Shown here piece by piece: positions 13,743-29,991 of a stretch of DNA of 64,000 nucleotides. The stretch is taken from assembly GCF_039539005.1 (NCBI RefSeq), contig NZ_BAABCP010000001.1, positions 1,426,001 through 1,490,000 of the forward strand. The letters are read 5' to 3'. Both the position numbers and the translations under genes were made by a program. Within the stretch, counting starts at the first letter, position 1. The number at the start of each line of letters is the position of its first letter. The notes below the pieces were generated by a model. It had not been told where the DNA came from. It saw nothing but the letters and a program-made list of their open reading frames with translations, and ran no database searches. The DNA comes from Microbacterium soli. Lineage in GTDB: Bacteria; Actinomycetota; Actinomycetes; Actinomycetales; Microbacteriaceae.

Positions 13743-15314
13743 TTACTCTTCGGCGGCTGCGGGGGGGAGTCCAGCGGCGACATAGCGATCGACCATGGCG
13801 CCCCAGGGCAGAACTCCGACCCGATCGGCCCAGTTCTGCCATTGCTGGGCGAGGCGCTCGCAGACCTCCGGATGGCTGCCGGCGAGGTCATGCGTCTCGG
13901 CACGATCCGCGTGGAGATCGTAGAGCTCCCACACGCCGGGATAGGCGCGGACCAGCTTCCACTTGCCCACACGGATCGCCGAGTTGCCGATGTGCTCCCA
14001 GTACAGGGGCACGGCATCGAGCTCGGCGCCGGTCAGTGCCGGCAGCAGGGAGCGTCCCTCTGTCTCATGGGCGGGGAGACCGGCAGCGTCGAGGATCGTC
14101 GGTACGATATCGACGAGCTGAGCCGGCAGGTCCACGATCGCGCCCGGTTCGAGCCCGCCCGCCGGCCAATGCATGATGAGCGGCGTGGAGATACCGCCCT
14201 CATGCACCCACCGCTTGTAACGGCGGAATGGGGTGTTCGAGAGGTTCGCCCACGCTACGCCATAGCTGGAATACGTGTCTTCGGGGCCCGGCACGATCTC
14301 GGGAGTGTTGCCGAACGACACCGGTCTGCCGTCGCGGGTCCCTTCGCGCAGCACGCGATCCTTCTTCACGAACGTCGCATCGTCACCGATCGGAAGCTCC
14401 TCGGCGGACGCACCGTTGTCCGAGAGGAAGAGCACGATGGTGTTGTCAAGAGCATCTTGCCGCGTGAGTTCACCGAGTATCTCGCCGACCGCACGGTCGA
14501 GTGCGACCACCTGGGCGGCATATGCCTCCATCCGCGTGAGCTGCCACTCCGCATCGTCGACGTTCGCCCAGGCGGGCTGGGTGGGATCCCGCTCGGTGAG
14601 CGTGGTGACCACGGGGAGGATGCCGCTTCCGCGCAGTGCGTCGAGCCGTCGTTCTCGCAAGGCGTCCCACCCGTCGTCGAAGAGTCCGCGCACGGCTGCG
14701 ATGTCTTCGGGGCGGGCGTGCAGCGGCCAGTGGGGCGCAGTGAAGGCTGCGTACAGGAAGAACGGATCGGTCGAGTCCTCGCGAGCGGCCAGCCATTTCG
14801 TGGCCTCAGCACCGATCGCATCGGTGTAGTAGAACTCCTCGTCGTCGAGGGCGTCGCTTGCGGGGCTCTCTCCGCGGGTCAGCGTCTGCGGCGAGTAATA
14901 GCTGGAGCAGCCTGCCAGCGTCCCGAAGAAGTCGCCGAACCCTTTTCGCGTCGGCCATGACGCGTTCGGCGTGTGGGGGTCGGCGGCGAGATGCCATTTG
15001 CCGAACAGTGCGGAGTCCCAGCCCGCCGCTGAGAGTGTCTCGGCGACGGTAGGGACATCGGGATTCAGGTTGCCCGGGTATCCAGCGGGGAGGTCGGGAC
15101 GGGTGAGGACGCCGATTCCAGTCTGGTGCGGATGCAGTCCGGTGAGCAGTGATGCACGGGACGGACTGCACCGGGCGGTGTTGTAGAACTGTGAGAGCCG
15201 GACTCCGCCGTGCGCCAAGCTGTCGAGATTCGGCGTGGGGATCTCGCCGCCGTAGCAACCGAGATCCGAGAAGCCCATATCATCGGCGACGATGAGCAGG
15301 ATGCTCGGTTTCAC
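13743..15314 (-). CDS. Sulfatase, formylglycine type (arylsulfatase family)
   Basis: This 523-residue type I sulfatase has metal ligands at the start (LLIVADDMGFSDLGCYGG, Asp11/Asp12), the activation motif CSPSR at Cys49 whose Cys is converted to formylglycine, and the second metal pair in VLFLSDNGAS. No signal peptide is visible, so it is probably cytoplasmic and acts on imported sulfated oligosaccharides. It starts at GTG 15314 behind a strong GAAGGAGG. It is divergent from the ROK regulator, and their shared intergenic region carries the ROK-type operator. No formylglycine-generating enzyme lies in the window. The substrate, likely a sulfated sugar given the beta-helix protein and importer nearby, is inferred. 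Confidence 0.92.
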   Translation of the reverse strand: MKPSILLIVADDMGFSDLGCYGGEIPTPNLDSLAHGGVRLSQFYNTARCSPSRASLLTGLHPHQTGIGVLTRPDLPAGYPGNLNPDVPTVAETLSAAGWDSALFGKWHLAADPHTPNASWPTRKGFGDFFGTLAGCSSYYSPQTLTRGESPASDALDDEEFYYTDAIGAEATKWLAAREDSTDPFFLYAAFTAPHWPLHARPEDIAAVRGLFDDGWDALRERRLDALRGSGILPVVTTLTERDPTQPAWANVDDAEWQLTRMEAYAAQVVALDRAVGEILGELTRQDALDNTIVLFLSDNGASAEELPIGDDATFVKKDRVLREGTRDGRPVSFGNTPEIVPGPEDTYSSYGVAWANLSNTPFRRYKRWVHEGGISTPLIMHWPAGGLEPGAIVDLPAQLVDIVPTILDAAGLPAHETEGRSLLPALTGAELDAVPLYWEHIGNSAIRVGKWKLVRAYPGVWELYDLHADRAETHDLAGSHPEVCERLAQQWQNWADRVGVLPWGAMVDRYVAAGLPPAAAEE

Positions 15315-15322
15315 GCAACCTC

Positions 15323-15351
15323 CTTCATTAATTGATGAGTGTAACTATATA
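15323..15351 (+). promoter_or_regulatory. ROK-type operator and promoter, copy A (sulfatase/ROK divergent)
   Basis: The 20-bp sequence TTAATTG-N6-GTAACTA occupies 15328-15347. It matches copies upstream of the beta-helix gene and the substrate-binding protein gene. Phased as in the other two copies, a -35-like CTTCAT (15323-15328) and a -10-like TATATA (15346-15351) flank it on the plus strand, pointing at the ROK gene. Its position also covers the sulfatase 5' region. Autoregulation by the ROK protein is the natural inference. Confidence 0.65.
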
Positions 15352-15395
15352 CCTTACCCCGTGGAAAGCACGAGTTTGCGCAAGGATGGCAGATA

Positions 15396-16598
15396 GTGGC
15401 TCACACAGATTTCCGCACCAATGACCGGCGCTCGCTGGCGATATCCGATGATCTCCGGCGGGGGAACATCGCCGCGATCGCGCGCGCATTGCTGCTTGAG
15501 GGACCGCTTGCCCGCGCTGAACTGGCGCAGAAGCTCTCACTGACGCGCGCCACCGTGACGCGTGCCGCCGCGCAGCTGATCGATGTCGGGTTGGTTCGCG
15601 AAGGTGAGGCACGGCGAGCGACGAGCGGACGCCCCATGGTTCCGCTGGAACTGGATGGATCTCGACGCGTCGTGATCGCCGTGCATCTGGGGGCCGTCGA
15701 GTTGCGGGCGGGGATCATCGACATCGAGGGGCGCATCATCACCCATGACGTCCTGCGATATGAAGGAACTTCACCCGCCGCCGTCTCGATGCTCGTGCGG
15801 CGTGCGGTCGCCGGGCTGACGGAGGGCATGTCCCCGCAGATGACGATCCTCGGAATGGGGGCCACGATCGGAGGGTGGGTCGATCCGCACAGTCAGACGA
15901 TCATCCGCTTCGATCCACTCGGTTGGCGCGACGTGAACTTCGTCGATGCGATTCCTGATCTCGGCTATCCGCGCTGGTTCGACCAGATCGTTCGAGGCAT
16001 CGCGGTCGCCGAGAGCCTCTTCGGCGTCGCACGAGGGCATCAGGACTTCGTCGTTCTCTGGTCGGGGCACATTCTCGGCTCGGCGTCAGTGTGGGGCGGT
16101 AGCGTGCAACGCGGTGTTCGCGGTGGTGCAGGCATGATCGATCACCTTCCCACCGGTAGGGATCATCCGTCGTGCGTGTGCGGACAGTCTGGATGCCTCG
16201 GCATGGTTGCGACCGACCAGGCGATTCTGGACGCGGCGCGAGCGGGGGGTATACCGAACGGCGGTGTGGACTCGCTGCGCAGTCTCTTTCGCGAGTCGGG
16301 TGAGGATGCGCGACTGTCCGCGCTGATTCGTGAACGTGCTGCTGATTTCGGACGGGCCGCGCGGGTGATCGCGCAGCTGCGAGCACCCGAGTTGTTCGTC
16401 ATCGCAGGTCTGATCACGACGCACTCCGAGTATGAACGAGAGTTCCGCCGCGCACTTCATACCGGTGCAGGAGTGGCTGCCGACGTGGAGGTCCGCCGCT
16501 CGGAATTCGGCGGGCTCGCAACGATCGAAGCCAGCGCCGCTCTCGTGATCGATGACTACTATCGCGATCCGATGGCCTTCGAAGCATCGTCGGTCTGA
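15396..16598 (+). CDS. ROK-family transcriptional repressor
   Basis: This 400-residue NagC/XylR-type regulator has an N-terminal winged helix-turn-helix (NIAAIARALLLEGPLARAELAQKLSLTRATVTRAAAQLI, about residues 25-70) followed by a ROK sugar-kinase-like domain. The zinc-binding cluster C260-x-C262-G-x-x-G-C267 is intact, as expected for sugar-sensing repressors. The kinase phosphate-binding consensus is weak, consistent with a regulator rather than a kinase. It starts at GTG 15396, nine bases after AAGGA. The gene is divergent from the sulfatase, and the same operator recurs at three promoters around it, so it should control the sulfatase, the beta-helix protein and the Opp-type importer in response to a sugar. 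Confidence 0.9.
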   Translation: MAHTDFRTNDRRSLAISDDLRRGNIAAIARALLLEGPLARAELAQKLSLTRATVTRAAAQLIDVGLVREGEARRATSGRPMVPLELDGSRRVVIAVHLGAVELRAGIIDIEGRIITHDVLRYEGTSPAAVSMLVRRAVAGLTEGMSPQMTILGMGATIGGWVDPHSQTIIRFDPLGWRDVNFVDAIPDLGYPRWFDQIVRGIAVAESLFGVARGHQDFVVLWSGHILGSASVWGGSVQRGVRGGAGMIDHLPTGRDHPSCVCGQSGCLGMVATDQAILDAARAGGIPNGGVDSLRSLFRESGEDARLSALIRERAADFGRAARVIAQLRAPELFVIAGLITTHSEYEREFRRALHTGAGVAADVEVRRSEFGGLATIEASAALVIDDYYRDPMAFEASSV

Positions 16599-16709
16599 CA
16601 TCGCGCGGCGTACCTCGTGCGACGCGATCGTGCAGCTCTCCTCGAGGCCGTCGTCACGGGGAGAAGGAGGACTTCCCACGCGCGGACAAAAGCTGTCGGC
16701 AAATAGTCG

Positions 16710-16738
16710 TTGACTTAATTGTCGCATGTAACTAATCT
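16710..16738 (+). promoter_or_regulatory. ROK-type operator and promoter, copy B (beta-helix gene)
   Basis: A -35 TTGACT (16710-16715) and a -10-like TAATCT (16733-16738) are spaced by 17 bases. The 20-bp operator TTAATTG-N6-GTAACTA fills the spacer (16715-16734), sharing the last base of the -35 box. Bound repressor would block polymerase directly. It lies about 80 bases before the beta-helix coding start. Confidence 0.7.
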
Positions 16739-16818
16739 TTCTCCGAGATGCGCGGCACGTGGCGGGGTGAGGGAGCCCAGCCGAAAGCGATGGACCGCAA
16801 TCGGAGGAAGGTCGGAGC

Positions 16819-19800
16819 ATGTCTCTTCGAAAGCACGCGCGCGGCGCGGCGATCACAGCGGTCACGATTCTCACCGCTGCGGCATCCGTGACATTCGGTC
16901 TGTCGTCGGCGGCGATGGCGGCTGATGACGCGACGACGTACTACATCGACTGTTCGGCCGAGGGCGATGGCAACGGCTCAGAAGCGTCGCCGTTCACGTC
17001 GTTGGACCAGATCAATGCGATCATGCTGACAGCAGGCGATAGAGCATTGTTCCGCCGAGGGGCCACCTGCAACGGAGAGTTCGCCCCTCAAGGCGGCGGT
17101 TCACAGGCGGCTCCGGTCGTGATCGCCGATTACGGCGATGCGGCGACGCGCGCGGTCATCGACGCGGACGGCGCGGAGAACGGCGTGCTGCTGAAGAACA
17201 ACAGCTTTCTGCATCTGACCGACCTCGAGGTCGTGGCTCCGGGGGACAACATCCAGAAGCGCAGGGGGGTCGCCATCACGGGCGAGGACGGCGGTGCGCT
17301 GAAGGGGATCCGCGTTGAAGGCATGTACATCCACGACGTACGAGGCACACTCCCGGCGGTTGCCGATCCCGGCTCTGTCGGAAGTTTCAAGGGCAAGACC
17401 GACACCGCGACCGGAGGCATCATCGTCGATGCCGAGGGAGACAAGACGCCGACGTGGTTCGAGGGACTTCAGATCCTCAACAACCGCATCGAAGATGTGG
17501 ACCGGCAGGGCATCTATTTCTGGTCGAATTGGTGTCAGCGGCCGATGCTCAATCGCTGGGGCAACTTCTGCGATCAGCCTTGGGCGCCGAGCACGGACGT
17601 CTTGGTGGCGGGCAATGAACTCCGCAGTATCGGCGGAGACGGGCTCGTCCTCCACAACGTGGATGGTGGCGTGGTCGAGCACAACACGCTCGACGGCTTC
17701 AACCGCCGGTCCAAGTCGAACAATGCCGGGCTGTGGACGGCGAACGCCGACAACGTGACGTTCCAGTACAACCGCGTGATGAACGGGCTGAGCACGTACG
17801 ACACACAAGCGTTCGACATCGACCACGCGACGAACGACATCACCATTCGCTACAACTTCTCTCGTGACAACGAGGGAGGATTTCTGCTCCTGTGTCCGGA
17901 CAACAGTGGAACGATCAACGCGAGGGTCCACGACAACATCTCGGTGAACGAGGGCGCCCGTGTCGTTCAGAACGGGTGCGGCGGACCGGTCAAGGACGCG
18001 CAGATCTACAACAACACGATCTACTCCGACTCGACGGCTCAGCAGTTCTGGCTGGGCAGTGGGACCAATGCGACGGTCGATGTGTTCAACAACCTCATCG
18101 TCGCCGAGGGCGAGGGCAGGATCACGTACGGCGTGCCGACCGGCGTGAACGTGCATGACAACCTTTTCCAAGGGGTCGACATCGGGGACGCCGAGTCCGA
18201 CAACATCGTCACCGATGACGCTGCCCTCAGCGACCCGCGCAGCTACGAGCCAGACGGATACCGGTTGCTCTCCGATAGTCCGGCGATCGGTGCGGGCATC
18301 CCGCGGCCGGAGGAGGGGACGACGGACTTCTTCGATACGCCCGCTCCCGGAGGCGATGCGGAACCGGTCAACATCGGCGCTTATCAGGGTGACGGGTTCC
18401 CGGCCCCCGACAGCGTGGAATGCACCGCGAGACTGCGTGCGGAGGGCGGCACAGTGGTGGATGGCATCGCCGCTTTCACACTCACATCGACGAATCCCTG
18501 TGCGCACGATGTGCCTGGTGGGCCTGTCACGGTCAGCGTCTCTCCGGACTTCGAGATCGTCGGGGTCCCCGGTCTGCCCGAGGTGCCGTCGGGCGAGTCC
18601 GCGAAGACGGAGGTGCGGATAGCCGTCCCCGCGGAGACTGCGTCGGGGAGATATCCTGTGGCCTTCTCGCAGGACGGAGTGCGTCCCGTGACCGGTGTGA
18701 TCACCGTGCCACAGAGGTATTCCGAGATCGCCGCGGAGGACTTCGACGATGTCATCGAGGGAGACGTCCCTGTGGGATGGACGCGGACGGACGCGAACGG
18801 CTCGGGTGTCGCCGACCTTGACGGTGACCGTTCCCTGAGGATCGAACGAATCGAATCCACCACGAATGTCGCTCGTTGGGACTTCGGGGAGGATGAGTCG
18901 CCGGACCGTGTCGCCTTCGCAGTGCGCGCCGCACAGACCGACAGCGCACTCGGGGTGCACCTGCTCGATGCGGACGGTGGTGCTGTGGCGAGGATCTCGC
19001 TCGCCGATATCGGCGTGTGGTCGTATTCGGACAATGCGTACTTCACCGACACCGATGAGTCGTATGCTGCGGACACCTGGTACGACGTGGTCATCGAGCG
19101 CAGCGGCGACAGGTTCACGGTGGCCGTGGATGGAGAGCTGCTCGGTACCGGCGCCGTGGGCAGCGTGAAGCCGATCGCTGCGCTGCGGGTTCAGGTTCCC
19201 AGCAGTGCGCGCAATGATGGTTCCTTCGCCGTCGACGACATCGTGCTCGAGCAGGAGTCGGAGGGCGGTCTTGTGCCGGCCGATCCGAAGCCGGCCGACA
19301 CGGTGAAGACGGAGCCCGTTGAGCGCGAAGCGGCGGATGCGGGGGAGTCCGCAAGCGAGGGTCCTTCGATCGTTCCGCAACGCCCGGCCGTGGTCGAAGC
19401 GGGGAACAGCGCGGCGTTCGAGGTTCGTGGGTTCCGCGCGAATGAGCCGGTGACGGTCACCGTCGGTGAGAGCTCCGGTACGGCGTACACGGATGAGTCG
19501 GGACGCACCGTCGTCGCCGTGCCGCTCGGAGAGCGCACGGTCATCTCGGATGCCGAGGTCCGTGCCGAACAGGATCGTTTGGGTGACGGGATCCTGGTCG
19601 GATGGCCGTCGGACACCGACGAGGAGCAGAACGGCGGCGGATCATCGCCGTCGGGGCAGCCGACTGCATCGGTGGGTGCGGATGACGGGGCCCCCGCCGC
19701 GACGGTGTCCTTCGGATCGGATGAACTCGCGGAGACCGGGCAGGAGCTTCCCTGGGCGCCCGTCGGCGCGGCCGTGATTCTGCTGGCGCTCGCTGCCGGC

Positions 19801-19830
19801 CTGATGGTGAGGAGGCGTCGCTTGCATTAG
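16819..19830 (+). CDS. Secreted right-handed beta-helix (pectin lyase-fold) protein, LAxTG-anchored
   Basis: This 1003-residue surface protein has a signal peptide ending in AMA-AD near residue 34, then a right-handed beta-helix of roughly residues 40-530 with repeated NN.I and HDN turns (DLEVVAPGDNI, QILNNRIEDVDRQG, VHDNISVNEGARVVQNGCGG). Next come an Ig-like domain (about 535-630), a LamG-like jelly roll (about 640-815), a second Ig-like domain (PAVVEAGNSAAFEVRG), a Ser/Gly linker and a sortase signal (LAETG at about 970, hydrophobic stretch, RRRRLH). Pectin-lyase-fold proteins cleave or bind acidic polysaccharides; no catalytic residues can be assigned here. The shared operator links it to the sulfatase and importer, so it likely handles polysaccharide at the cell surface. 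Confidence 0.88.
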   Translation: MSLRKHARGAAITAVTILTAAASVTFGLSSAAMAADDATTYYIDCSAEGDGNGSEASPFTSLDQINAIMLTAGDRALFRRGATCNGEFAPQGGGSQAAPVVIADYGDAATRAVIDADGAENGVLLKNNSFLHLTDLEVVAPGDNIQKRRGVAITGEDGGALKGIRVEGMYIHDVRGTLPAVADPGSVGSFKGKTDTATGGIIVDAEGDKTPTWFEGLQILNNRIEDVDRQGIYFWSNWCQRPMLNRWGNFCDQPWAPSTDVLVAGNELRSIGGDGLVLHNVDGGVVEHNTLDGFNRRSKSNNAGLWTANADNVTFQYNRVMNGLSTYDTQAFDIDHATNDITIRYNFSRDNEGGFLLLCPDNSGTINARVHDNISVNEGARVVQNGCGGPVKDAQIYNNTIYSDSTAQQFWLGSGTNATVDVFNNLIVAEGEGRITYGVPTGVNVHDNLFQGVDIGDAESDNIVTDDAALSDPRSYEPDGYRLLSDSPAIGAGIPRPEEGTTDFFDTPAPGGDAEPVNIGAYQGDGFPAPDSVECTARLRAEGGTVVDGIAAFTLTSTNPCAHDVPGGPVTVSVSPDFEIVGVPGLPEVPSGESAKTEVRIAVPAETASGRYPVAFSQDGVRPVTGVITVPQRYSEIAAEDFDDVIEGDVPVGWTRTDANGSGVADLDGDRSLRIERIESTTNVARWDFGEDESPDRVAFAVRAAQTDSALGVHLLDADGGAVARISLADIGVWSYSDNAYFTDTDESYAADTWYDVVIERSGDRFTVAVDGELLGTGAVGSVKPIAALRVQVPSSARNDGSFAVDDIVLEQESEGGLVPADPKPADTVKTEPVEREAADAGESASEGPSIVPQRPAVVEAGNSAAFEVRGFRANEPVTVTVGESSGTAYTDESGRTVVAVPLGERTVISDAEVRAEQDRLGDGILVGWPSDTDEEQNGGGSSPSGQPTASVGADDGAPAATVSFGSDELAETGQELPWAPVGAAVILLALAAGLMVRRRRLH

Positions 19831-19850
19831 TTGCTGGTAGTAATTATTAT
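19822..19850 (+). promoter_or_regulatory. ROK-type operator and promoter, copy C (Opp-type importer)
   Basis: A -35 TTGCAT (19822-19827) and a good -10 TATTAT (19845-19850) are 17 bases apart. The operator TTAGTTG-N6-GTAATTA occupies 19827-19846, in exactly the same phase as copy B. The motif overlaps the TAG stop codon of the beta-helix gene, so this promoter begins inside the end of the upstream gene. Confidence 0.7.
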
Positions 19851-19889: not shown

Positions 19890-21443
19890 GTGAAAGACAA
19901 TCGCCGCCGAACGGCAGCTCTCGCAATAGCAACCTTGACCGCTGTGCTCCTGGCAGGGTGCGCCTCGGCAGTGGAGCAGGCCGAGTCATCGGGCGACGGT
20001 GAGGCCACGGACGGCGGGACGCTCACCATCGTCCAGTCGGCCGACATCTCGCCGAACACGATGTTCTCCCAGAACAATCCGAACATGAGTGTGGAGCGCG
20101 CGATCTTCAATTCGCTCGTGCAGTACGACCACAAGACGCTGGAGCCGTTGCCCGAGCTCGCGACGTCGTGGACGCTCTCCGACGACGGCACGCAGATCAC
20201 TTTCGCCCTCCGCGACGATGTGACCTTCCATGACGGGCGGGCGTTCACCGCCGACGATGTCCTCGCGAGCATCGATACGCTTCTTCGTCCCGAAGTGCCC
20301 TCTCAGACCAAACACATCGCCGCGGAGATCACCGAGAAGAAGGCCGTCGACGATCACACGGTGCAGATCACGTTCGGCAAAGCGATGAGCAACTACATGG
20401 ACCTGTTCCTCATGATGCCGATCATCGACGGCACCGATCCGGACGGAATGCTGTCGGGGAAGAACATGAACGGGACGGGCCCCTTCAAGGTCGAGTCCTA
20501 TTCCCCCGGGCAAGGCGCCGATCTGGTCAAGAACGATGACTACTGGGTGAAGGGGGCCCCGCATCTCGACGGGGTGAGATTCACCGTGGTGCGGGACTCG
20601 CAGTCGATGCTCTCATCGCTGAAGGCCGGACAGAGTCAGCTCGCGCTGGATCTGTCTCCGCTGGATGCCGCCAGCATCGAGGACCAGCCCGGCTTCGATC
20701 TGGTGAGATCCGACGCGAACGACTCTGCGCAGTACATCGGATCCAGCGTGTCGGTGCCGGTCCTGAAAGACAAGCGGGTCCGGCAGGCGATCTCCTACGC
20801 CATCGACCGTGAACGCATCCTCGAACAGGTCGACGGCGGAATCGGGACGGTAACAGCTCTCCCCTGGGCGGAGAGCTCGCCGGCCTACGACGCAGACAAG
20901 GCGAACCACTTCGAGCGCGACATCGACAAGGCCAAGAGCCTGCTCAGCGAGGCGGGCGCCGATGGCGAGAGCGTGAAGATCTACTTCAATTCGGGCTTCC
21001 CCCCCTCGGCGGGTATGGCTGAAGTGATCGAATACGACCTCCAGGAAGCCGGCCTCAAGCCGGTGCTGATGCCGCTTCAAGCCAGCGACTTCACCTCTCG
21101 GCTGCAAGGGGCGAAGTTCGACGGCCTGTTCCTCGCCGGGCACGGCTTCGGGCAACTGCACCCAGCCACCCTGATCAAGGGCGCCTTCCCGTTCAATGCC
21201 GATAAGAACGCATCCGGCTTCGACAGCGACGAGTACCGGGCCTTGGCTGACAAGATCTGGCAGAGCAGCGGCGACATCGATCAGGCGACCTATGATCAGG
21301 TCAACGAATTCCTGCTCGACCAGCAGTTCGTCAGCGACTTGGTGCTCTCTACGCACACCTACGCGATCAGTGACTCGCTGAAGGGTCTGGACGAGACGAT
21401 GCTCGACTACTTGATCCTGGACGAAGCGTACCTGCAGAAGTAG
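19890..21443 (+). CDS. ABC transporter substrate-binding lipoprotein, family 5 (Opp/Dpp-like)
   Basis: This 517-residue extracytoplasmic binding protein starts at GTG 19890 after GAAGGAG and has a lipobox LAGC (Cys24). The mature part shows family 5 signatures: YDHKTLEPLPELATSWTLSDDG, FTADDVLASIDTLL, TGPFKVESYSPGQGADLVKNDDYW and VRQAISYAIDRERI. Proteins of this family bind peptides, but in Actinobacteria many bind oligosaccharides. With a sulfatase, ROK repressor and beta-helix protein under the same operator, an oligosaccharide ligand is the better guess. It heads an importer operon running to the fused ATPase at 25441. Confidence 0.92.
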   Translation: MKDNRRRTAALAIATLTAVLLAGCASAVEQAESSGDGEATDGGTLTIVQSADISPNTMFSQNNPNMSVERAIFNSLVQYDHKTLEPLPELATSWTLSDDGTQITFALRDDVTFHDGRAFTADDVLASIDTLLRPEVPSQTKHIAAEITEKKAVDDHTVQITFGKAMSNYMDLFLMMPIIDGTDPDGMLSGKNMNGTGPFKVESYSPGQGADLVKNDDYWVKGAPHLDGVRFTVVRDSQSMLSSLKAGQSQLALDLSPLDAASIEDQPGFDLVRSDANDSAQYIGSSVSVPVLKDKRVRQAISYAIDRERILEQVDGGIGTVTALPWAESSPAYDADKANHFERDIDKAKSLLSEAGADGESVKIYFNSGFPPSAGMAEVIEYDLQEAGLKPVLMPLQASDFTSRLQGAKFDGLFLAGHGFGQLHPATLIKGAFPFNADKNASGFDSDEYRALADKIWQSSGDIDQATYDQVNEFLLDQQFVSDLVLSTHTYAISDSLKGLDETMLDYLILDEAYLQK

Positions 21444-21457
21444 TAGGTGATCGCCGG

Positions 21458-21489
21458 CCGGTGGTGCGGGCTTCGGCGCGCACCACCGG
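21458..21489 (+). terminator. GC-rich stem-loop between binding protein and permease
   Basis: CCGGTGGTGCG (21458-21468) pairs perfectly with CGCACCACCGG (21479-21489) around a 10-base loop. There is no T-tract and the permease genes follow directly. It more likely stabilises or partly terminates the message, giving more binding protein than membrane subunits, as known for malE-malF-like operons. Confidence 0.65.
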
Positions 21490-21516
21490 GCTGTTCAGGG
21501 TATTCAGGGAGCTGTG

Positions 21517-22467
21517 ATGCTGCGTTACATCCTTCGTCGCCTGCCGGCGACGATCGTCGTCCTTCTGATCTCGTCGGTCGCCATCTTCGTGATCATCCGT
21601 CTCGCACCGGGCGATCCGGCGACACTGGTCGCGGGGCCGGATGCCGACGACCAGACGATTGCCGCGATCCGTTCCGAACTCGGCCTCGACAAACCGCTGG
21701 TCGTGCAGTACTTGACCTGGCTCGGTGGCGTATTGACCGGGAACCTCGGTACCTCCTATCTTCTGCAGGCGCCGATCTCGGAACTCATAGGTCAGAGCCT
21801 CGGCAACACGATCATGCTGGCCACCGCTGCGACGATCATCGCTGTCATCGGTGGCGGCATCGTCGGCTACATCATGGGGACCACTCGTTCGTCGTTCCTC
21901 CGCACAGCGCTCTCCGGCGTCAATTCGCTCGGAATCGCGGTGCCCACGTACGTCACCGGTGTTCTGCTGGTCCTCGTCTTCGCCGTCACCTGGCGCATCC
22001 TGCCCCCCGGCGGCATGGGCCCCGGCCTGCGGGACTTCTCCCTGGGCTGGCAGTACCTGCTGATGCCGGCGATCGCTCTGAGCTTGCCGACCGCGGCCAC
22101 ACTGGCACGGTTCCTGGCGGCGTCGCTGCGGCAGACGCTCGGCCAGGACTTCGTTCAGACCGGCATCGCGAAGGGGCTTCGCAACCGCCGTCTGATCGGC
22201 GCGCACGTTCTTCCCAATTCTCTGCCTCCGGTGATCACCGTGCTCGGTCTGCAGATCGGTCAGATGCTCGGCGGTGCGATCATCATCGAGACCATCTTCG
22301 CGTGGCCGGGCATCGGGCAGCTTCTGCTGCAGGCGGTGAACGGCAACGACTACCTCCTCACGCAGGCGTTGCTCCTCATCGCCGTCGCCGTCTTCATCAT
22401 CGTCCAACTGGTCAACGACGTCGTCGACGCGGCGATGGACCCGCGCATCCGATTGGAACTGAAATGA
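21517..22467 (+). CDS. ABC transporter permease, DppB/OppB-like
   Basis: This 316-residue membrane protein begins MLRYILRRLPATIVVLLISS, the usual start of OppB/DppB subunits. It carries LAPGDPATLVAGPDA and the conserved C-terminal coupling loop with RQTLGQDFVQTGIAKGL and HVLPNSLPPVITVLG. ATG 21517 is chosen over GTG 21514 because AGGGAG sits five bases before the ATG. It forms the channel with the next gene, whose ATG overlaps its stop. Confidence 0.93.
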   Translation: MLRYILRRLPATIVVLLISSVAIFVIIRLAPGDPATLVAGPDADDQTIAAIRSELGLDKPLVVQYLTWLGGVLTGNLGTSYLLQAPISELIGQSLGNTIMLATAATIIAVIGGGIVGYIMGTTRSSFLRTALSGVNSLGIAVPTYVTGVLLVLVFAVTWRILPPGGMGPGLRDFSLGWQYLLMPAIALSLPTAATLARFLAASLRQTLGQDFVQTGIAKGLRNRRLIGAHVLPNSLPPVITVLGLQIGQMLGGAIIIETIFAWPGIGQLLLQAVNGNDYLLTQALLLIAVAVFIIVQLVNDVVDAAMDPRIRLELK

Positions 22468-23333
22468 CCGCCGTCACTGACACCGTCGCCATGGCAACCG
22501 CACCCGCGAAGCGCTCACGGCGTCGCTCGCTCCTGCGCGGGCTCCGCAGCCCTGAAGCGATCGTCGGGATCGTGATCATCGTGGTCGCGGCTGCGGTCGG
22601 CATCGCCGCGCCGCTTTTCACACCGTACTCACCGGTCGACCAGGGGCCGGATGCGTTTCTCCCGCCCGGTGCCGCACACCTGCTGGGAACCGATGAGTTC
22701 GGGCGTGACCTCATGACACGCGTGCTCTACGGAATTCGTCAGGATCTGATAGTCGGTGCGATCGCGGTACCGATCGGTGCCGTCATAGGGACGATCCTCG
22801 GTGCGGTGAGCACGATGCACAAAGTGCTCGACATGCTCGTCCAGCGCGCCTTCGACGTCTCCTTGGCCTTCACAGGCCTTGTGATGGGCGTGACGGTGGC
22901 CGCGCTCATCGGGCCAGGACTCGTTGCAGTGCTCGTGACGGTGTCATTGGTCAACATCCCGTTGTTCGGGCGGCTCTCACGCAACGCCATCCGGGGCCTT
23001 CGTTCGCGGGAGTACGTGCTGGCGGCGCGCATCGTCGGTGTGCTTCCGCTGCGCGTACTGTTCCGCCATGTCCTGCCCAATGCGCTCGATGCGCTGATCG
23101 TCCAGGCGGCGGTGAGCCTCTCGCTCGCTGTCTTCCTCGAAGGCGCGATGAGCTTCGTCGGCATTGGTGTCCGACCGCCCGAGCCGTCGTTGGGCTCGTT
23201 GCTTCGCACGAGCATCAGCTTTCTCGACCGTGCGCCGATGTACGCGATCGCTCCCATGATCGTCGTGACCGCACTCGTTCTCGCATTCAATCTGGTCGGG
23301 GATGGGTTGAACAAGGGACTGCTCAAGCGATGA
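22464..23333 (+). CDS. ABC transporter permease, DppC/OppC-like
   Basis: This 289-residue OppC/DppC-type subunit has a short cytoplasmic N-terminus with a basic stretch (KRSRRRSLLRGLRS), a first membrane helix, the segment HLLGTDEFGRDLMTRVLYG that is diagnostic of the family, and the ATPase-coupling loop REYVLAARIVGVLPLRVLFRH. A longer open frame upstream is out of register with the first permease and is rejected. ATG 22464 overlaps the previous stop as ATGA, and its own stop overlaps the ATPase gene in the same way. Confidence 0.93.
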   Translation: MTAVTDTVAMATAPAKRSRRRSLLRGLRSPEAIVGIVIIVVAAAVGIAAPLFTPYSPVDQGPDAFLPPGAAHLLGTDEFGRDLMTRVLYGIRQDLIVGAIAVPIGAVIGTILGAVSTMHKVLDMLVQRAFDVSLAFTGLVMGVTVAALIGPGLVAVLVTVSLVNIPLFGRLSRNAIRGLRSREYVLAARIVGVLPLRVLFRHVLPNALDALIVQAAVSLSLAVFLEGAMSFVGIGVRPPEPSLGSLLRTSISFLDRAPMYAIAPMIVVTALVLAFNLVGDGLNKGLLKR

Positions 23334-25441
23334 CTGAGATGAAATCCGTCGCCCCCGTGCTGCGTGTTCGGGATCTTCACACGACATTCGACACCGACGA
23401 CGGGCCGGTTTCAGCGGTCCGCGGGGTCGACTTCGACATCGCACATGGAGAGGTCCTTGCTCTCGTCGGGGAGTCGGGTTCCGGCAAGTCCGTCACCGCG
23501 ACGTCGATTCTGAACATGGTGCGCGCACCGGGACGCGTGGAGTCCGGGTCCGTGGAGTTCGACGGGACCGACTTCCTCTCGCTGTCGGATGCGGAGCAGC
23601 GGGAGATCCGTGGGCAGGGGATCGGCATGATCTTCCAGGATCCGATCGGCTCGTTGAATCCGCTGATGAAGGTGCGGGACCAGCTCGTCGAGACGATACG
23701 CGCGCACGGTTCGATCGGGCGGCGGGAGGCGGAGCGCCGCAGCATCCAACTGCTCGCCGACGTGGGCATCCCCGACCCTGAGGCTCGCATGGCCGATTAT
23801 CCCCTGGCGTTCTCCGGCGGCATGTCGCAGCGCGTCATGATCGCGATGGCGCTCGCCAATCGGCCGAAGCTCATCATCGCCGACGAACCGACGACGGCAC
23901 TGGATGTGACCATCCAAGCGCAGATCCTCGAGCTGCTGATCGAACTCGGCAGAGCGCAGGGGACGGCGGTGCTCCTGATCACCCACAACCTCGGGGTCGT
24001 GGCCAGGGCGTGCAATCGTGTTGCGGTCATGTATGCGGGCAAGATCGTCGAGACGGGACCGGTCGGTGAGGTGTTCGCCGCACCGCAGCATCCGTACACT
24101 CGTGATCTGCTCAGTGCGACGCCGTCGTTGGAGCGATCGAAGGGTTTGCCGCTCGTCGCGATCGACGGCCGGCCGCCGCTGTTGAGCAAGCCGCCGAAAG
24201 GGTGCGCCTATGCGGACCGTGATCCGCGCGCATTCGACCGCTGCTGGGTGGAAGATCCCGCGCTCGTGGGCGGAGATCGCAGACGGGCGTGCTGGCTGCC
24301 GTTGACGGACGGCACAGTGCCGCCTCGCGATGCAGCACCTGAACAGGTCGCTGAGTCTCGGAACGCAGCCGGGGGCGTGGTGCTCGATATCGAGGATGTG
24401 CGACGAACCTACCCGGTGGGTCCGAAGACGCTGTTCGGGAGGCAGAAGCAGACTCTGCATGCCGTCGACGGCGTGAGTTTCGCTGTTCGTCGTGGCGAGA
24501 CGGTGGGGCTGATCGGTGAATCAGGATGCGGCAAGTCGACCCTCGGACGCCTCATCCTCGGTATCGAGGAACCGGTCGAAGGCGACATTCGCTTCGAAGG
24601 GCGGTCGATTCTGGGTATGCGAGGCGCACAGCGACGCGCATACAACCAGCAGGTTCAGCTGGTCTTCCAGAACCCCATGGGGGCGCTCAACCCCCGGATG
24701 ACGGTGGGACAGTCCATTGCGGAAGCGCTGCGAAACGGCGTTCTCGATGCGGAGCAGCGCGCGGCACGGGTGGTGGAATTGCTCTCGCTCGTCGGGATGG
24801 ATGCAGCAGCTGCGGAACGCTATCCACACGAGTTCTCCGGAGGCCAACGCCAACGCGTCGTGATAGCGAGAGCACTCGCGGTCGACCCGACGCTGATCGT
24901 GCTCGATGAGGCAGTGGCCGCGCTCGATGTCTCCCTTCAGGCGCAGGTGATCAATCTGCTGCGCCGGTTGCAGGAGCAGATTGGGCTGGCGTACGTGTTC
25001 ATCGGACATGACCTGGCGACGGTGCGGTACATCTCAGACCGTATTCTGGTGATGTACCTGGGGGAGATCGTCGAGGAGGGCGATGCTGCGTCGCTGACTG
25101 CTTCGCCGTTGCATCCGTATACGGCGAGCCTCGTGTCGGCGGTGCCGGAGCCCGACCCGGACAGCGCGAAGAGCGTCGAACGGATCATTCTGCGCGGTGA
25201 GGTACCGACGCCGATCGATCCGCCGCAGGCCTGTCGATTCCATACCCGCTGTCCGATCGGTCCCCGATACCGAGAGGATCGCGGCATCTGCGCCACCGAG
25301 AAGCCGGTGCTCGAAGATGTGGGTGACGGGCGTCGGGTGGCCTGCCACTTCCCCGGGGAGCTGGTCTCCGCCGGGCGGACTGCGGATGCGGCAGATCTCG
25401 GGCCCGTTCGCGAGACCGGATCCAGGTATCGCAACGCATAG
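23330..25441 (+). CDS. ABC transporter ATP-binding protein, fused DppD-DppF type
   Basis: This 703-residue protein fuses the two ATPase subunits that are separate in most Opp/Dpp systems. Domain 1 (about 1-330) has [24 protein letters not shown] and [12 protein letters not shown], followed by an oligopeptide-type C-terminal extension with Cys residues ([14 protein letters not shown]). Domain 2 (about 340-690) has [36 protein letters not shown] and a second extension ([20 protein letters not shown]). Such fusions are common in Actinobacteria. The cysteine-rich tails resemble those that hold an iron-sulfur cluster in Dpp ATPases; that is an analogy. It is coupled by an ATGA overlap to the permease. 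Confidence 0.93.
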
Positions 25442-25604: not shown

Positions 25605-26609
25605 ATGGCAGCGACGATGGCAGACGTCGCCCGTATCGCGGGCGTCTCGAAGAAGACCGTCTCGAACTTCTTCAACGGCTACCCGTACATGCGGGACGAG
25701 ACGCGCCAGCGGATCGAGGCGGCCATCGAGCAGCTGAACTACAAGGTCAACATCTCCGCGCGCAACCTCAGCTCAGGGCGCACGGGGTCGATCGGACTGG
25801 CGGTTCCGGAACTGGCTCACCCGTACTTCGCCGAACTGTCGCAGGCCGTCGTGAGCGCGGCACAGCGGCGCGGACTCAATGTGCTGGTCGAGGTCACCGA
25901 CGGCAAGCGGACACGCGAACTCGACGTGCTGAACGGCACGGGCGGGCGCAGTGTGGACGGGATCATCTTCGAGCCGATCGCACTCTCGCCCGATGACATC
26001 CGCGACGCGACGACGGCCATTCCTCTGATCCTGATCGGCGATCGAGTGCATGAGGGGCGCTTCGACTTCGTCGCCGTCGCCAACGAGGCAGGAGCCCATG
26101 ACGCGACCGCGCACCTGCTCAGTTCGGGGCGCAGACGCATCGTCGCGCTGGGGATGGAGGACTCTGAGGAGCCGACGGCGGCCGCCGGTCGCTATCGCGG
26201 GTACCTGCGCGCTCTCGAAGAGGCGGGGGTGCGATGCGACCCACGGCTTCTCGTGGGCCCGATCCCGTGGAATCGGACTGCGGGTGCCGATGCCGTGGCA
26301 CGGCTCATCGACGAAGGAGTCGAGTTCGATGCCGTGTTCGGACTGAACGATGCACTTGCGCTGGGCGCCATGAGCCAGCTTCAGAGGCGGGGGCTGGGGG
26401 TGCCGCAGGATGTCGCGGTCGTGGGATTCGACAACGTCGATGAGGGACGATTCAGCAGTCCGGCACTGACGACGATCGAATCCGGGCGTGAGTGGATCGC
26501 GCAGAAGGCAGTCGAACTGCTGGCGCAGCGGCTTGCGAGTCCTGAGGAGAGCATGGGCACCACGCTGCTCATGGCGGGCCACCGGCTGGTCGAACGCGAC
26601 TCCGTCTGA
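25605..26609 (+). CDS. LacI-family transcriptional repressor
   Basis: This 334-residue regulator has the N-terminal LacI helix-turn-helix (MADVARIAGVSKKTVSNFFN, preceded by four residues) and hinge (NYKVNISARNLSSGRTGSIG), then a periplasmic-binding-protein-like sensor domain ending VAVVGFDNVDEGRFSSPALTTIE. The start ATG 25605 follows AGGAGG by six bases. It is immediately upstream of, and co-directional with, the GH127/sugar importer/GH2 operon. Two near-palindromic CACCGGTG-centred sites lie between them and are its probable operators. The inducer is probably a sugar released by those hydrolases. Confidence 0.93.
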   Translation: MAATMADVARIAGVSKKTVSNFFNGYPYMRDETRQRIEAAIEQLNYKVNISARNLSSGRTGSIGLAVPELAHPYFAELSQAVVSAAQRRGLNVLVEVTDGKRTRELDVLNGTGGRSVDGIIFEPIALSPDDIRDATTAIPLILIGDRVHEGRFDFVAVANEAGAHDATAHLLSSGRRRIVALGMEDSEEPTAAAGRYRGYLRALEEAGVRCDPRLLVGPIPWNRTAGADAVARLIDEGVEFDAVFGLNDALALGAMSQLQRRGLGVPQDVAVVGFDNVDEGRFSSPALTTIESGREWIAQKAVELLAQRLASPEESMGTTLLMAGHRLVERDSV

Positions 26610-26636
26610 TCCTTCGAGCCGGATGTGAGATTTCTC

Positions 26637-26691
26637 TTGACATTGCAGTAGTACACCGGTGTAGGTTTGGCGTAGTGCACCGGTGTACTAC
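26637..26691 (+). promoter_or_regulatory. Promoter with two tandem LacI-type operators
   Basis: A perfect -35 TTGACA stands at 26637-26642. The first operator TACACCGGTGTA (26652-26663) is a perfect 12-bp palindrome in the expected -10 region. The second, GTAGTGCACCGGTGTACTAC (26672-26691), is palindromic except for one base pair. Their centres are 24 bases apart and both contain the CG centre typical of LacI-family sites. The -10 box itself is unclear (TGTAGG or TAGGTT). The pair lies between the LacI gene and the GH127 gene. Confidence 0.8.
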
Positions 26692-26716
26692 CGTTCAATG
26701 AAGAAGAGGAAGCCCT

Positions 26717-28588
26717 GTGGAAAGTCAGTCTCGAGTGACCGTCGCCCCCGCCGTCCCCGCATCCCGCACGGCCCGTCGCCCCTTCGATCTGCGCGATGTC
26801 CGCCTCGGAGGTCAGCTGCTGGGCGAGTGGCAGAGGCTCAATCGCGAGGCGACCATTCCGCACTGCATCGACCGACTGGAGACGTCCGGCGTGCTGGACA
26901 ACTTCCGACGCCTCGCAGGTACCAGCACCGCTCCGTTCCGCGGTCCGTTGTTCTCCGACTCCGACATGTTCAAGACGCTGGAGGCCATCGGATGGGAGGC
27001 GGTTCGTGGAGACGTCTCGGATTTCATGGGTTTCGTCGACGAGGCCATCGAGCTGATCCGCGCCGTGCAGGAGCCGGATGGGTATGTCAACACATACTTC
27101 CAGGGCCCGCGTGCGGGTCGAAGGTTCACTGATCTCGCGCAAGGGCATGAGCTCTACTGCCTCGGACACCTGATCCAGGCCGCCATCGCGTGGGCGTATG
27201 CCGGGCGGACGGATCTGATCGACCTCGCTCTTCGGTACGTGGAGCTCGTCCATGAGACTTTCGGAGAAGGCGGCCGCGATGACATCGACGGGCACCCCGA
27301 GATCGAGACCGCTCTGGTCGAGCTCGCACGGTTCACCGGCGACCAGCGTCACCGCGAGCTCGCGCGCCGCATGGTCGAGCTGCGAGGCCATCGCACGATC
27401 GGAGAGGGCCAGTTCGGCGGCGCCTACTACCAGGATCTGGTGCCGGTGCGAGAGGCGCGCGAGGTGACGGGGCATGCGGTCCGCCAGCTCTACCTTCTGG
27501 CCGGTGTCACCGATCTGCAGCTCGACGACCCCGGATCCGGGTACCAGGACGCGCTGGATGCTCTGTGGCGCAGCGAGCACGAGCAGCGGATGTACATCAC
27601 CGGTGGCGTCGGTTCACGCCATCGGGGTGAGGCGTTCGGCGATGCCTATGAACTTCCCGCCGACCGCGCGTACTCCGAGACGTGCGCCGCCATCGCCAAT
27701 CTGCACTGGAACTGGCGGATGCTGCTGCTCCATGGCGACTCGCGCTTCGCGGATGAGATGGAGCGCGGCCTCTACAATGCGATCGCGGTGTCCACGGCGA
27801 TCGACGGACGCTCGTTCTTCTACTCCAATCCACTCCAGCTGCGGACCGGGCACGACCATGAGGAGGACGCTCCGTCTGCGAGACTCGACTGGTACGCCTG
27901 CGCCTGCTGTCCGCCCAATCTTGCTCGCCTTCTGGCCAGCATCGGGGGCTACCTTCTGACTCGCTCCGACGACGCGGTGCAGTTCCAGCTCTACGCCGAC
28001 GGTGAATACGACCTCGGTGAGGGCGTGCGCGCCGCGGTGCGGACGGCATATCCCTGGGACGGGACGATCCGCATCGAACTGTCGGCCCCGTCGACGACCA
28101 GGATCGAGCTCCGCATCCCCTCCTGGGCGACGGACGTCGGGCTCACTGTCGACGGAGTCGACCATCCGGTGCCGGGCGTCGGCTATGCCGACGTTCAGCC
28201 GGGCGCGCGTGTCATCGAGCTGGCGCTCGGGATGCAGGGCGAGGTTCAAGCCGCGCATCCGTGGGTCGATGCGGTCCGCGGGTCGCTCGCCGTGCGTCGC
28301 GGCCCGGTGCTGTACGCGCTGGAGCAAGCCGATCTCCCCGAGGGCGTCGCGGTCGAGGACGTCGTCGTCCCGATCGACCCGAGGATCGAGGACGCCGGCT
28401 GGGATGATGAACTCGGTGCGCCCGTGCTCAGCATCCCCGGCTCCGCGCGCCGCTCGAGGAACACCGGGCTGTACTCCGCGACGGCATCGACAGCGCTCGA
28501 CGACCTCGGCTCGATCACCGTCATCCCCTACTTCCGCTGGGCCAACAGGTCCCGCGGGGCAATGCGCGTCTGGTTGCCCACCAGCTGA
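26717..28588 (+). CDS. Glycoside hydrolase family 127-type enzyme (beta-L-arabinofuranosidase-like)
   Basis: This 623-residue protein begins at GTG 26717, six bases after AGAGGA. It has the family's (alpha/alpha)6-barrel features and residues matching the known active site of beta-L-arabinofuranosidase: a Glu and Cys in YSETCAAIANLHWNWRM (Glu321, Cys323) and a Cys pair in CACCPPNLARL (Cys397, Cys398). In characterised members these bind zinc and one Cys is the nucleophile. No signal peptide is visible, so it acts inside the cell on imported oligosaccharides. The following sugar importer and beta-mannosidase-type gene share the operon. Substrates other than arabinofuranosides occur in related families. 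Confidence 0.88.
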   Translation: MESQSRVTVAPAVPASRTARRPFDLRDVRLGGQLLGEWQRLNREATIPHCIDRLETSGVLDNFRRLAGTSTAPFRGPLFSDSDMFKTLEAIGWEAVRGDVSDFMGFVDEAIELIRAVQEPDGYVNTYFQGPRAGRRFTDLAQGHELYCLGHLIQAAIAWAYAGRTDLIDLALRYVELVHETFGEGGRDDIDGHPEIETALVELARFTGDQRHRELARRMVELRGHRTIGEGQFGGAYYQDLVPVREAREVTGHAVRQLYLLAGVTDLQLDDPGSGYQDALDALWRSEHEQRMYITGGVGSRHRGEAFGDAYELPADRAYSETCAAIANLHWNWRMLLLHGDSRFADEMERGLYNAIAVSTAIDGRSFFYSNPLQLRTGHDHEEDAPSARLDWYACACCPPNLARLLASIGGYLLTRSDDAVQFQLYADGEYDLGEGVRAAVRTAYPWDGTIRIELSAPSTTRIELRIPSWATDVGLTVDGVDHPVPGVGYADVQPGARVIELALGMQGEVQAAHPWVDAVRGSLAVRRGPVLYALEQADLPEGVAVEDVVVPIDPRIEDAGWDDELGAPVLSIPGSARRSRNTGLYSATASTALDDLGSITVIPYFRWANRSRGAMRVWLPTS

Positions 28589-28644
28589 GACACCGGACGG
28601 CCCGCCGGTCCGCCGGCAACCACCATGAAGAGAGGAAACACGCA

Positions 28645-29934
28645 ATGAGGCGTCACATCACACCCCTCGCCGCCGTTGTCGCGCTCGCGACCGCAGCGGT
28701 GGCGCTGTCCGGATGCTCGGGGGGAGGAACCGACGGCGGAAGCGGGAACGGGACTGTCAGCGTCTGGGTTCGCGACTCGCAGTCGGGCTTCATCAACAAG
28801 CTCGCCGACGAGTTCAACAAGACCCACCCGGACATCGAAGTCGAGGTCACGATCGTCCCCTCCGCGGACTTCGTGCAGAAGTTCGGCACCGCTGCAGCCG
28901 GTGGCAGCGCACCGGACGTCGCCTCGATGGATCTCGTCTACGCGCCGTACTTCGCGTCTGCCGGTGCTCTCACGGACATCAGCGACAAGGTGGACAGCCT
29001 GCCCTGGAAGGACGACATGAGTCCCGCGCACGTCTCCCAGGGGCAGTACGACGGCAAGACCTATGCGCTGCCCTTCACCGGCGACGTCTCCGTCATGTAC
29101 TACAACAAGGATCTCTTCACGAAGGCCGGACTCGATCCGGAGAAGCCGCCGACGACGATGGACGAGGTCCAGGCGGCTGCCGAGAAGATCACGGCACTGG
29201 GCGACGGCGTCTACGGGTTCGCCTTCTCGGGAGCCTGCGGCGGCTGCAACATCTTCTCGATGGGGCCGTCCGTCTGGGCGCAGGGAGGGAACGTGCTCTC
29301 CGAGGACGGGCAGACGGCTCAATTCGACAGCCCCGAGGTCACCCGGACGCTGACGATGTACCGCGACATGTGGGACAGCGGTGCGATGCCGCAGCTGGTG
29401 AAGTCCGACGGCGGCTCCAATGCCGGCGACGCCTTCAAGCAGGGAAAGGTCGGCATCTTCAACTGGGGCGACTTCTACCTGACCTCTCTCACGGACCCCG
29501 CCTCAGGGGCCACGTTCGACTGGGGAGTCGCTCTGATCCCGGGTGCGGAATCCGGTCAGACCGCATCCTTCGCCGGTGGCGATGACATCGCCATCCCTTC
29601 CGGGGCGAAGAACCCCGAGGGGGCCTGGCAGTTCCTCAAGTGGGTCACCGACGAGAAGGCGCAGTCGATCATGGCCGACAACGGGGTCATGCCGATCCGG
29701 CTGGATCTGGCGGACAAGGTGTACACGAACAAGGACCCGCGAAACAAGGTCTTCGCGGAGGCTCTCGCTCAGGGCCACGTGCCCTACAGCGTCGTCGAGA
29801 ACGAACTGATCAATGACTCGAACGGTGTCTGGTCGACGCTCATTCAGGATGCCGTCTTCGGCTCCGGCTCGGTGCAGGATGCCCAGGCCAAGGCGCAGAA
29901 GGACGGTCAAGCGATCCTGGACAAGAACAAGTAG
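28645..29934 (+). CDS. Sugar ABC transporter substrate-binding lipoprotein (family 1)
   Basis: This 429-residue lipoprotein has a lipobox LSGC (Cys24) followed by a Gly/Ser-rich linker. The mature domain shows family 1 features: FINKLADEFNKTHPDIEVEV, TYALPFTGDVSVMYYNKDLF and GDDIAIPSGAKNPEGAWQF. Such proteins bind oligosaccharides for CUT1 importers. It is the first gene of the importer, preceded by GAAGAGAGGAAAC. There is no ATPase gene in the operon, so a shared MsiK-type ATPase is expected, as is usual for actinobacterial CUT1 systems. Confidence 0.93.
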   Translation: MRRHITPLAAVVALATAAVALSGCSGGGTDGGSGNGTVSVWVRDSQSGFINKLADEFNKTHPDIEVEVTIVPSADFVQKFGTAAAGGSAPDVASMDLVYAPYFASAGALTDISDKVDSLPWKDDMSPAHVSQGQYDGKTYALPFTGDVSVMYYNKDLFTKAGLDPEKPPTTMDEVQAAAEKITALGDGVYGFAFSGACGGCNIFSMGPSVWAQGGNVLSEDGQTAQFDSPEVTRTLTMYRDMWDSGAMPQLVKSDGGSNAGDAFKQGKVGIFNWGDFYLTSLTDPASGATFDWGVALIPGAESGQTASFAGGDDIAIPSGAKNPEGAWQFLKWVTDEKAQSIMADNGVMPIRLDLADKVYTNKDPRNKVFAEALAQGHVPYSVVENELINDSNGVWSTLIQDAVFGSGSVQDAQAKAQKDGQAILDKNK

Positions 29935-29942
29935 ATCCGCAC

Positions 29943-29973: not shown

Positions 29974-29991
29974 GACTACCTGGAGCTCGCA

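What the first reader, a model, noticed from the sequence alone, without database searches (positions are those of the whole stretch)
15323..19850. Three identically phased operators define a small ROK regulon
The motif TTA(A/G)TTG-N6-GTAA(C/T)TA occurs at 15328, 16715 and 19827, always before a gene of one carbohydrate locus. In each copy it sits between a -35-like and a -10-like box with the same offset: the operator's first base is the last base of the -35 box and the -10 starts 18 bases on. The ROK repressor gene is itself downstream of copy A. The match in sequence, spacing and promoter phase is far beyond chance for a high-GC genome, yet ROK operators in this group are poorly described. 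Sulfatase, beta-helix protein and importer would be induced together.
Basis: partly seen in the sequence, partly recalled or inferred. Interest (0 to 1): 0.75.

Follow-up and report, generated by a model that had tools for sequence, protein, structure and literature searches.

The report
Three-site ROK repressor regulon beside sulfatase
One sugar-type repressor gene and three matching DNA switches probably turn a sulfatase, a surface beta-helix enzyme and a nutrient importer on and off together; the same arrangement recurs in a related genus, so it looks real, but it is a familiar kind of local bacterial regulation.

Summary
They are the only exact copies in the 3.1-Mb genome and in 366 genomes of the genus. 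They form a near-palindrome, TARTTG-N7-TAAYTA, whose final TA opens the -10 box in all three. The -35 box is clear at B, partial at C and missing at A.

The decisive test is phylogenetic. The closest orthologue found in another genus (48% identical ROK, G373) keeps the block sulfatase / ROK / SBP5-OppB-OppC-OppDF and carries the dyad at the two equivalent places with the same -10 phase. ROK is the only regulator seen in both blocks. A more distant ROK (40-41%, G472) again sits beside an importer and a sulfatase, with a weak similar site. The geometry RTTR-N7-YAAY matches the published XylR (ROK) site GTTT-N7-AAAC.

Best explanation: an autoregulated ROK repressor controlling sulfatase, rok, a GH136-like beta-helix gene and an Opp importer. 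Binding, sign and inducer are untested. New member of a known kind. Mildly unusual: four of five canonical ROK sugar contacts are replaced and a sulfatase is the constant neighbour, so the inducer may not be a plain hexose.

The parts
13743..15314 (-). Sulfatase (S1 type, no signal peptide, CSPSR maturation motif), divergent from rok
   Evidence: PF00884 3.5e-57; motif; PDB 7all 9e-99, 1hdh 7e-78
15328..15347 (+). Operator copy A TTAATTGATGAGTGTAACTA, between sulfatase and rok
   Evidence: equivalent site in L032 10056-10075
15346..15351 (+). -10-like box TATATA of the rok promoter; no real -35
15396..16598 (+). ROK-family regulator, 400 aa, wHTH plus ROK domain
   Evidence: PF00480 1e-23; NagC model 6e-29 below its cut-off; PDB 1z05, 5f7p, Mlc
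16710..16715 (+). -35 box TTGACT of the beta-helix promoter
   Evidence: 5/6
16715..16734 (+). Operator copy B TTAATTGTCGCATGTAACTA
16733..16738 (+). -10-like box TAATCT
   Evidence: 3/6
16819..19830 (+). Surface-anchored GH136-like beta-helix protein, 1003 aa
   Evidence: PF13229; LAVTG sorting domain NF058582, 28 bits vs cut-off 27; GH136 structures 3e-21 to 3e-13
19822..19827 (+). -35-like box TTGCAT of the importer promoter
   Evidence: 3/6
19827..19846 (+). Operator copy C TTAGTTGCTGGTAGTAATTA, overlapping the stop codon of the beta-helix gene
   Evidence: equivalent site in L032 8752-8771
19845..19850 (+). -10 box TATTAT
   Evidence: 5/6
19890..21443 (+). Family-5 solute-binding protein of the importer
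   Evidence: PF00496 3e-83
21514..22467 (+). OppB-type permease
   Evidence: PF00528 1.8e-34
22464..23333 (+). OppC-type permease
   Evidence: PF00528 2e-18, PF12911
23330..25441 (+). OppD-OppF fused ATPase
   Evidence: two ABC_tran stretches

Best explanation
A local, autoregulated ROK repressor regulon. A ROK dimer binds the near-palindrome TARTTG-N7-TAAYTA, which overlaps the -10 box at three promoter regions, and keeps RNA polymerase off (binding and sign inferred). Copy A serves the divergent sulfatase and rok itself, copy B the surface-anchored GH136-like protein, copy C the SBP5-OppBCDF importer. An imported compound or a breakdown product of it binds the ROK domain and releases the operators, so surface enzyme, importer and cytosolic sulfatase are made together (inferred; inducer unknown, probably a sulfated glycan fragment or its desulfated product).
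For: Exact motif only here in 366 genomes. Conserved block in another genus with sites at both equivalent places: 1 mismatch before SBP5; 3 mismatches to the 20-mer but a perfect relaxed dyad between sulfatase and rok, both with -10 (TATACT, TATAGT) at +18. Among seven genomes, 5 of the 7 perfect relaxed dyads lie at the two ROK loci. No LacI hit in L032 or L033 and ROK the only regulator among 8 ORFs tested in L032. Shared recognition segment LTRAT(V/I)TR in the window, L032 and L033 ROKs. Geometry equals XylR GTTT-N7-AAAC (PMC9104551 passages). Ten of 11 NagR (ROK) operators overlap -10 or -35 (PMC9599254 passages).
Against: No binding data. G472 site has 3 mismatches, a level reached in 15 of 200 shuffles, and its -10 is not at +18. 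None of 30 distant ROK loci (30-35% identity) has a 12/12 dyad. L032 lacks the beta-helix gene near the block, so copy B has no comparative support. Perfect relaxed dyads also occur at a TetR promoter (own genome) and beside an MFS gene in G373. With one mismatch allowed, relaxed-dyad counts are at control level in all seven genomes.
Confidence: 0.82

Rival explanations
1. The dyad is bound by another regulator (the LacI protein at 25605-26609 or a MarR/TetR-type protein encoded elsewhere) and the ROK gene is only a neighbour.
For: Similar dyads occur at a TetR gene promoter and beside an MFS gene; a LacI gene follows the importer.
Against: LacI has no tblastn hit in the conserved loci L032 or L033; ROK is the one regulator kept with the sites; the geometry is that of XylR.
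Confidence: 0.08
2. ROK binds the sites but acts as an activator or dual regulator, not a plain repressor.
For: ROK proteins can activate: CysR mostly activates, with sites upstream of -35 (PMC2580772 passages).
Against: All three sites overlap the -10 and the -35/-10 spacer, the position seen for repressed genes (cg2810; NagR).
Confidence: 0.06
3. Same regulon, but the signal is sulfur supply: the locus scavenges sulfate esters and the ROK answers to a sulfur metabolite as CysR does. (This concerns the inducer only and overlaps with the best explanation.)
For: A sulfatase accompanies this ROK in 3 of 3 contexts examined while the importer type changes; non-canonical effector pocket; CysR uses O-acetylserine/O-acetylhomoserine.
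Against: A GH136-like surface enzyme is in the regulon; GH130-type genes flank the L032 block; the CysR site is different (TGAAtnnAAt).
Confidence: 0.15
4. The motif is only a constrained promoter (sigma-factor) sequence, no operator.
For: It lies between -35 and -10 positions and its last TA is part of the -10.
Against: The conserved ARTTG and GTAAY parts are no sigma-70 element, and the exact motif is absent from the 365 other genus genomes.
Confidence: 0.03

Closest known systems
NagR (ROK) regulon of Bifidobacterium (PMC9599254; passages seen)
   Same: Actinobacterial ROK repressor with palindromic operators overlapping -10/-35; controls ABC importers and glycan-degrading genes; autoregulated nag cluster
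   Different: Global regulon (11 sites, 29 genes) answering to GlcNAc and its phosphates; no sulfatase mentioned in the passages; operator letters not seen by me
XylR (ROK) of Bacillus/Paenibacillus (PMC9104551; passages)
   Same: Divergent promoter region with rok gene; site geometry GTTT-N7-AAAC equals RTTR-N7-YAAY
   Different: Different target genes and inducer (xylose); outer and inner bases differ
RokB of Streptomyces coelicolor (PMC4856308; passages)
   Same: Actinobacterial ROK regulator; one site is an inverted repeat TTTGTTC-11X-GAACAAA
   Different: Other spacing and sequence; linked to amino-acid metabolism
CysR of Corynebacterium glutamicum (PMC2580772; passages)
   Same: ROK-type regulator with a non-sugar effector, tied to sulfur
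   Different: Mostly an activator; operator TGAAtnnAAt inverted repeat
GH136 lacto-N-biosidase LnbX (PMC8106489, PMC7335108; passages)
   Same: Beta-helix with the two catalytic Asp aligned (D328, D335, seven apart)
   Different: Remote similarity only; the second subunit/domain that GH136 needs was not looked for

Membership tests
ROK-family transcriptional regulator | N-terminal winged HTH plus ROK domain | tested here: met
   PF00480 84.8 bits over cut-off 22.9; HTH models weak, MarR_2 25.6 bits under its cut-off 27; PDB ROK repressors aligned from residue 18 or 28 on, HTH included
ROK-family transcriptional regulator | Zinc motif GHx9-11CxCGx2G(C/H)xE (PMC2742894) | tested here: inconclusive
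   H-x9-CxCGx2GC present, but the G before H is D and the final E is G
ROK-family sugar kinase | Catalytic Asp and DxGxT ATP motif | tested here: not met
   Catalytic D is I in the window ROK; no DxGxT at the start of the ROK domain
ROK repressor with sugar effector | Five sugar contacts N, D, E, H, E | tested here: not met
   Window ROK reads Q, I, M, H, G; other ROK regulators of the genome (L024, L025) also lose some
ROK operator | Inverted repeat with geometry GTTT-N7-AAAC, as for XylR | tested here: met
   RTTR-N7-YAAY at all three window sites and both L032 sites
ROK operator | Specific binding by the ROK protein | not testable with these tools
   needs gel shift or footprint
NagR-type HMO regulon | Orthology to NagR and nag/lnp target genes | not tested
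   No comparison with the NagR sequence was made; no nag/lnp-type genes were recognised among the regulon genes
GH136 lacto-N-biosidase (beta-helix protein) | Beta-helix domain with the two catalytic Asp | tested here: met
   D328 and D335 align with DGQAWDAD of LnbX 5gqc, seven apart as D568/D575 of ErLnb136; which LnbX Asp are catalytic is recalled
GH136 lacto-N-biosidase (beta-helix protein) | Second subunit or domain (GH136I/LnbY) | not tested
   not searched for; none of the window proteins scanned was named so
S1 sulfatase | PF00884 and C-x-P-x-R motif, with a formylglycine-generating enzyme in the genome | tested here: met
   PF03781 in 3 of 3 genomes searched

The most novel reading that the evidence does not exclude
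This ROK belongs to a separate branch (shared LTRAT(V/I)TR recognition helix, effector pocket with four of five canonical sugar contacts replaced) that is dedicated to sulfatase loci and senses a sulfated glycan fragment or another non-standard ligand rather than a plain hexose.
Probability: 0.3. Interest if true: 0.5.

Novelty: new member of a known kind. Interest (0 to 1): 0.34.

Why it matters
It gives a sharply bounded operator set for a ROK regulator and ties a sulfatase, a GH136-like surface enzyme and an Opp importer into one presumably inducible unit, so finding the inducer would name the substrate of the whole locus. The replaced sugar contacts raise the question of what this branch of ROK proteins senses. 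As regulation it is otherwise of a familiar type.

Tried and rejected
1) Other near matches in the own genome: 1207589 lies at the promoter of a TetR gene (PF00440 2.8e-10) and by eye is part of a different palindrome; rejected as a regulon member. 1862513 (TTAGTTTTGTAGAGTAACAA, 2 mismatches) precedes another SBP5/Opp locus with its own ROK gene about 6 kb on; taken as the possible site of that paralogue. 2) G373 C1:142308, a perfect relaxed dyad outside the ROK locus: it precedes an MFS gene (PF07690 2.5e-49) and by eye stands beside a second TAGTTG...CAACTA dyad; read as another regulator's site, not tested further. 3) Distant ROKs: 30 loci (L040-L069) scanned within about 300 bp of the gene; 7 further matches had no locus and were not scanned. 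None has a 12/12 dyad; L042 and L043 have 11/12 with a different centre, and L045 has the same kind of site. In one search the gene was taken as the longest ORF over the centre and is on the wrong strand or too long in some rows, so flank limits and the 'inside-gene control' are approximate. 5) Plasmids: two 34% Pseudonocardia hits. 6) Literature: no held paper has ROK, Microbacterium, sulfatase and regulon together (a narrow search). A sulfatase subfamily (S1_4, from the hits 7all and 1hdh) is recalled, not tested; one search gave passages on BT4683 but not the PDB code.

Full report
Observation. The motif TTARTTG-N6-GTAAYTA is at 15328, 16715 and 19827, + strand, as stated. At up to 3 mismatches the window holds five hits (two are reverse-strand readings of copies B and C) against 0.30 expected from shuffles. 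In the whole genome (3,116,214 bases) the three are the only exact copies, and in 366 genomes of the genus, this one included, the exact motif occurs three times, all here; the reversed-pattern control gives none. It is better described as a 19-bp near-palindrome TARTTG-N7-TAAYTA. Against WARTTR-N7-YAAYTW the three score 12 of 12; the next best in the window score 10.

Promoter phase. The -10 hexamer starts at operator +18 in all three: TATATA (4/6 of TATAAT), TAATCT (3/6), TATTAT (5/6). The operator's last TA is the start of that hexamer, so part of the phase follows from the motif itself. For scale, 5 of 592 TA positions in the window open a hexamer matching TATAAT at 5 or 6 places; copy C and both L032 sites do. 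The -35 at the stated place is TTGACT at B (5/6), TTGCAT at C (3/6) and CTTCAT at A (1/6). Copy A lies 13 bp upstream of the sulfatase start codon on the other strand, and a TATAGT on that strand overlaps its rok-side end in this genome and in L032 (sequences), so one site could cover both divergent promoters (inference).

Genes. Sulfatase (13743-15314, -), ROK (15396-16598, +), surface-anchored beta-helix protein (16819-19830), SBP5, OppB, OppC and an OppDF fusion (19890-25441). A LacI gene (25605-26609) and a GH127 / sugar ABC / GH2 group follow and hold no copy of the motif. The sulfatase begins directly with its catalytic domain and has CSPSR; formylglycine-generating-enzyme genes exist in 3 of 3 genomes checked. 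The beta-helix protein is related to GH136 lacto-N-biosidases (7v6m 3e-21, LnbX 5gqc 2e-19) and keeps both catalytic Asp by alignment (which Asp of LnbX are catalytic is recalled, supported by the seven-residue spacing of D568/D575 in ErLnb136). GH136 needs a second subunit or domain (passages) that I did not look for, so its activity is open. The genus is probably Microbacterium, judged only from the closest named protein.

Comparative test. Close relatives of this ROK are rare: 1 of 366 genus genomes (this one) at E<=1e-60, 3 of 398 family genomes at 1e-50 (this one, G373, G472), 2 of 396 order genomes at 1e-45 (this one and G941 at 34%), and 34 of 374 class genomes at 1e-40, the 33 others at 30-35%. 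The sets overlap, and only the best few candidates per genome were scored. The protein database adds one from Microbacterium panaciterrae at 57% and five at 53-56%, whose DNA did not turn up in my searches. In G373 (another genus, same family; L032) the block sulfatase / ROK / SBP5 / OppB / OppC / OppDF is kept (69, 48, 63, 69, 78, 68% identity), without a beta-helix hit. The dyad lies between sulfatase and ROK (AAAGTTACTGGCAGTAACTA, 3 mismatches to the 20-mer, a perfect relaxed dyad) and between ROK and SBP5 (TAAGTTGTAGGCGGTAACTA, 1 mismatch), with TATACT and TATAGT at the same +18. L032 as a whole gives 3 hits at up to 3 mismatches (two are one site on both strands) against 0.27 expected; 1 of 200 shuffles reaches 3. 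At the second site the -35-like TTGCGT is one base further off than in copy C.

Specificity. A relaxed-dyad search of seven genomes found seven perfect sites: 4 in the own genome (3 here, 1 at a TetR promoter), 3 in G373 (2 at the locus, 1 before an MFS gene), none in G472, G456, G528, G398 or G578. With one mismatch allowed the counts are at control level. In G472 (L033, ROK 40-41%) the next transcription unit (SBP_1, permease, sulfatase of 30% identity) has TTATTTGCATAGTGTAAACA, 3 mismatches, a level that 15 of 200 shuffles reach, and its -10 is not at +18: suggestive only. None of 30 distant ROK loci has a 12/12 dyad.

Assignment to ROK. ROK is the only regulator seen in both conserved blocks: LacI gave no tblastn hit in L032 or L033, and of 8 L032 ORFs scanned only the ROK is a regulator (not every ORF of L032 was scanned). 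The recognition segment LTRAT(V/I)TR is common to the window, L032 and L033 ROKs and to 15 of 16 aligned relatives of 38-57% identity (P0012 has LRRATVTR). That alignment used 24 of the 42 proteins. The geometry RTTR-N7-YAAY equals that of XylR, GTTT-N7-AAAC (PMC9104551, passages). NagR of bifidobacteria, a ROK repressor, has operators overlapping -10 or -35 at 10 of 11 sites (PMC9599254, passages).

Mechanism. Steric repression by ROK at three sites, lifted by an inducer, is the simplest reading (binding, sign and inducer inferred). The effector is open. Of the five sugar contacts named for ROK kinases (N, D, E, H, E; PMC2742894, passages) the window ROK reads Q, I, M, H, G. In the 19 rows of this group (window, L032, L033, 16 proteins) the catalytic Asp is absent in all, the first Glu is kept only in P0004 and the last only in P0023. 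Other ROK regulators of the same genome (L024, L025) also lose some of these residues, so this is unusual in degree, not unique. With a sulfatase beside the ROK in 3 of 3 contexts examined, an unusual, perhaps sulfated, ligand is possible; a sulfur signal, as for CysR (PMC2580772, passages), is a rival for the inducer.

Verdict. It is a new, well-delimited member of a familiar kind.

Noticed in passing
G000:C1:1862513-1862532 (L005 1501-1520; L034 2514-2533): TTAGTTTTGTAGAGTAACAA behind a TTGACG box and next to TTTGTTC-N6-GAACAAA, before a second SBP5/Opp locus that has its own ROK gene downstream: a likely second ROK-Opp regulon in the same genome.
   Followed up: partly
   Followed up: partly
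window 16819-19830: GH136-like beta-helix protein with sortase signal in what is probably a soil actinobacterium, beside a sulfatase; its substrate is unknown.
   Followed up: partly
window 25605-34303: LacI regulator with GH127 (closest NCBIfam model aceric acid hydrolase, below cut-off), a sugar ABC importer and a GH2-type enzyme: a second glycan locus directly downstream, without the ROK motif.
   Followed up: no
window 21447-23330: The 628-aa ORF is a false fusion: its first half is an out-of-frame reading over OppB (21514-22467); OppC starts at 22464.
   Followed up: yes
L032 13469-14536: A DUF4420 (putative PD-(D/E)XK family) gene lies beyond the sulfatase in G373.
   Followed up: no
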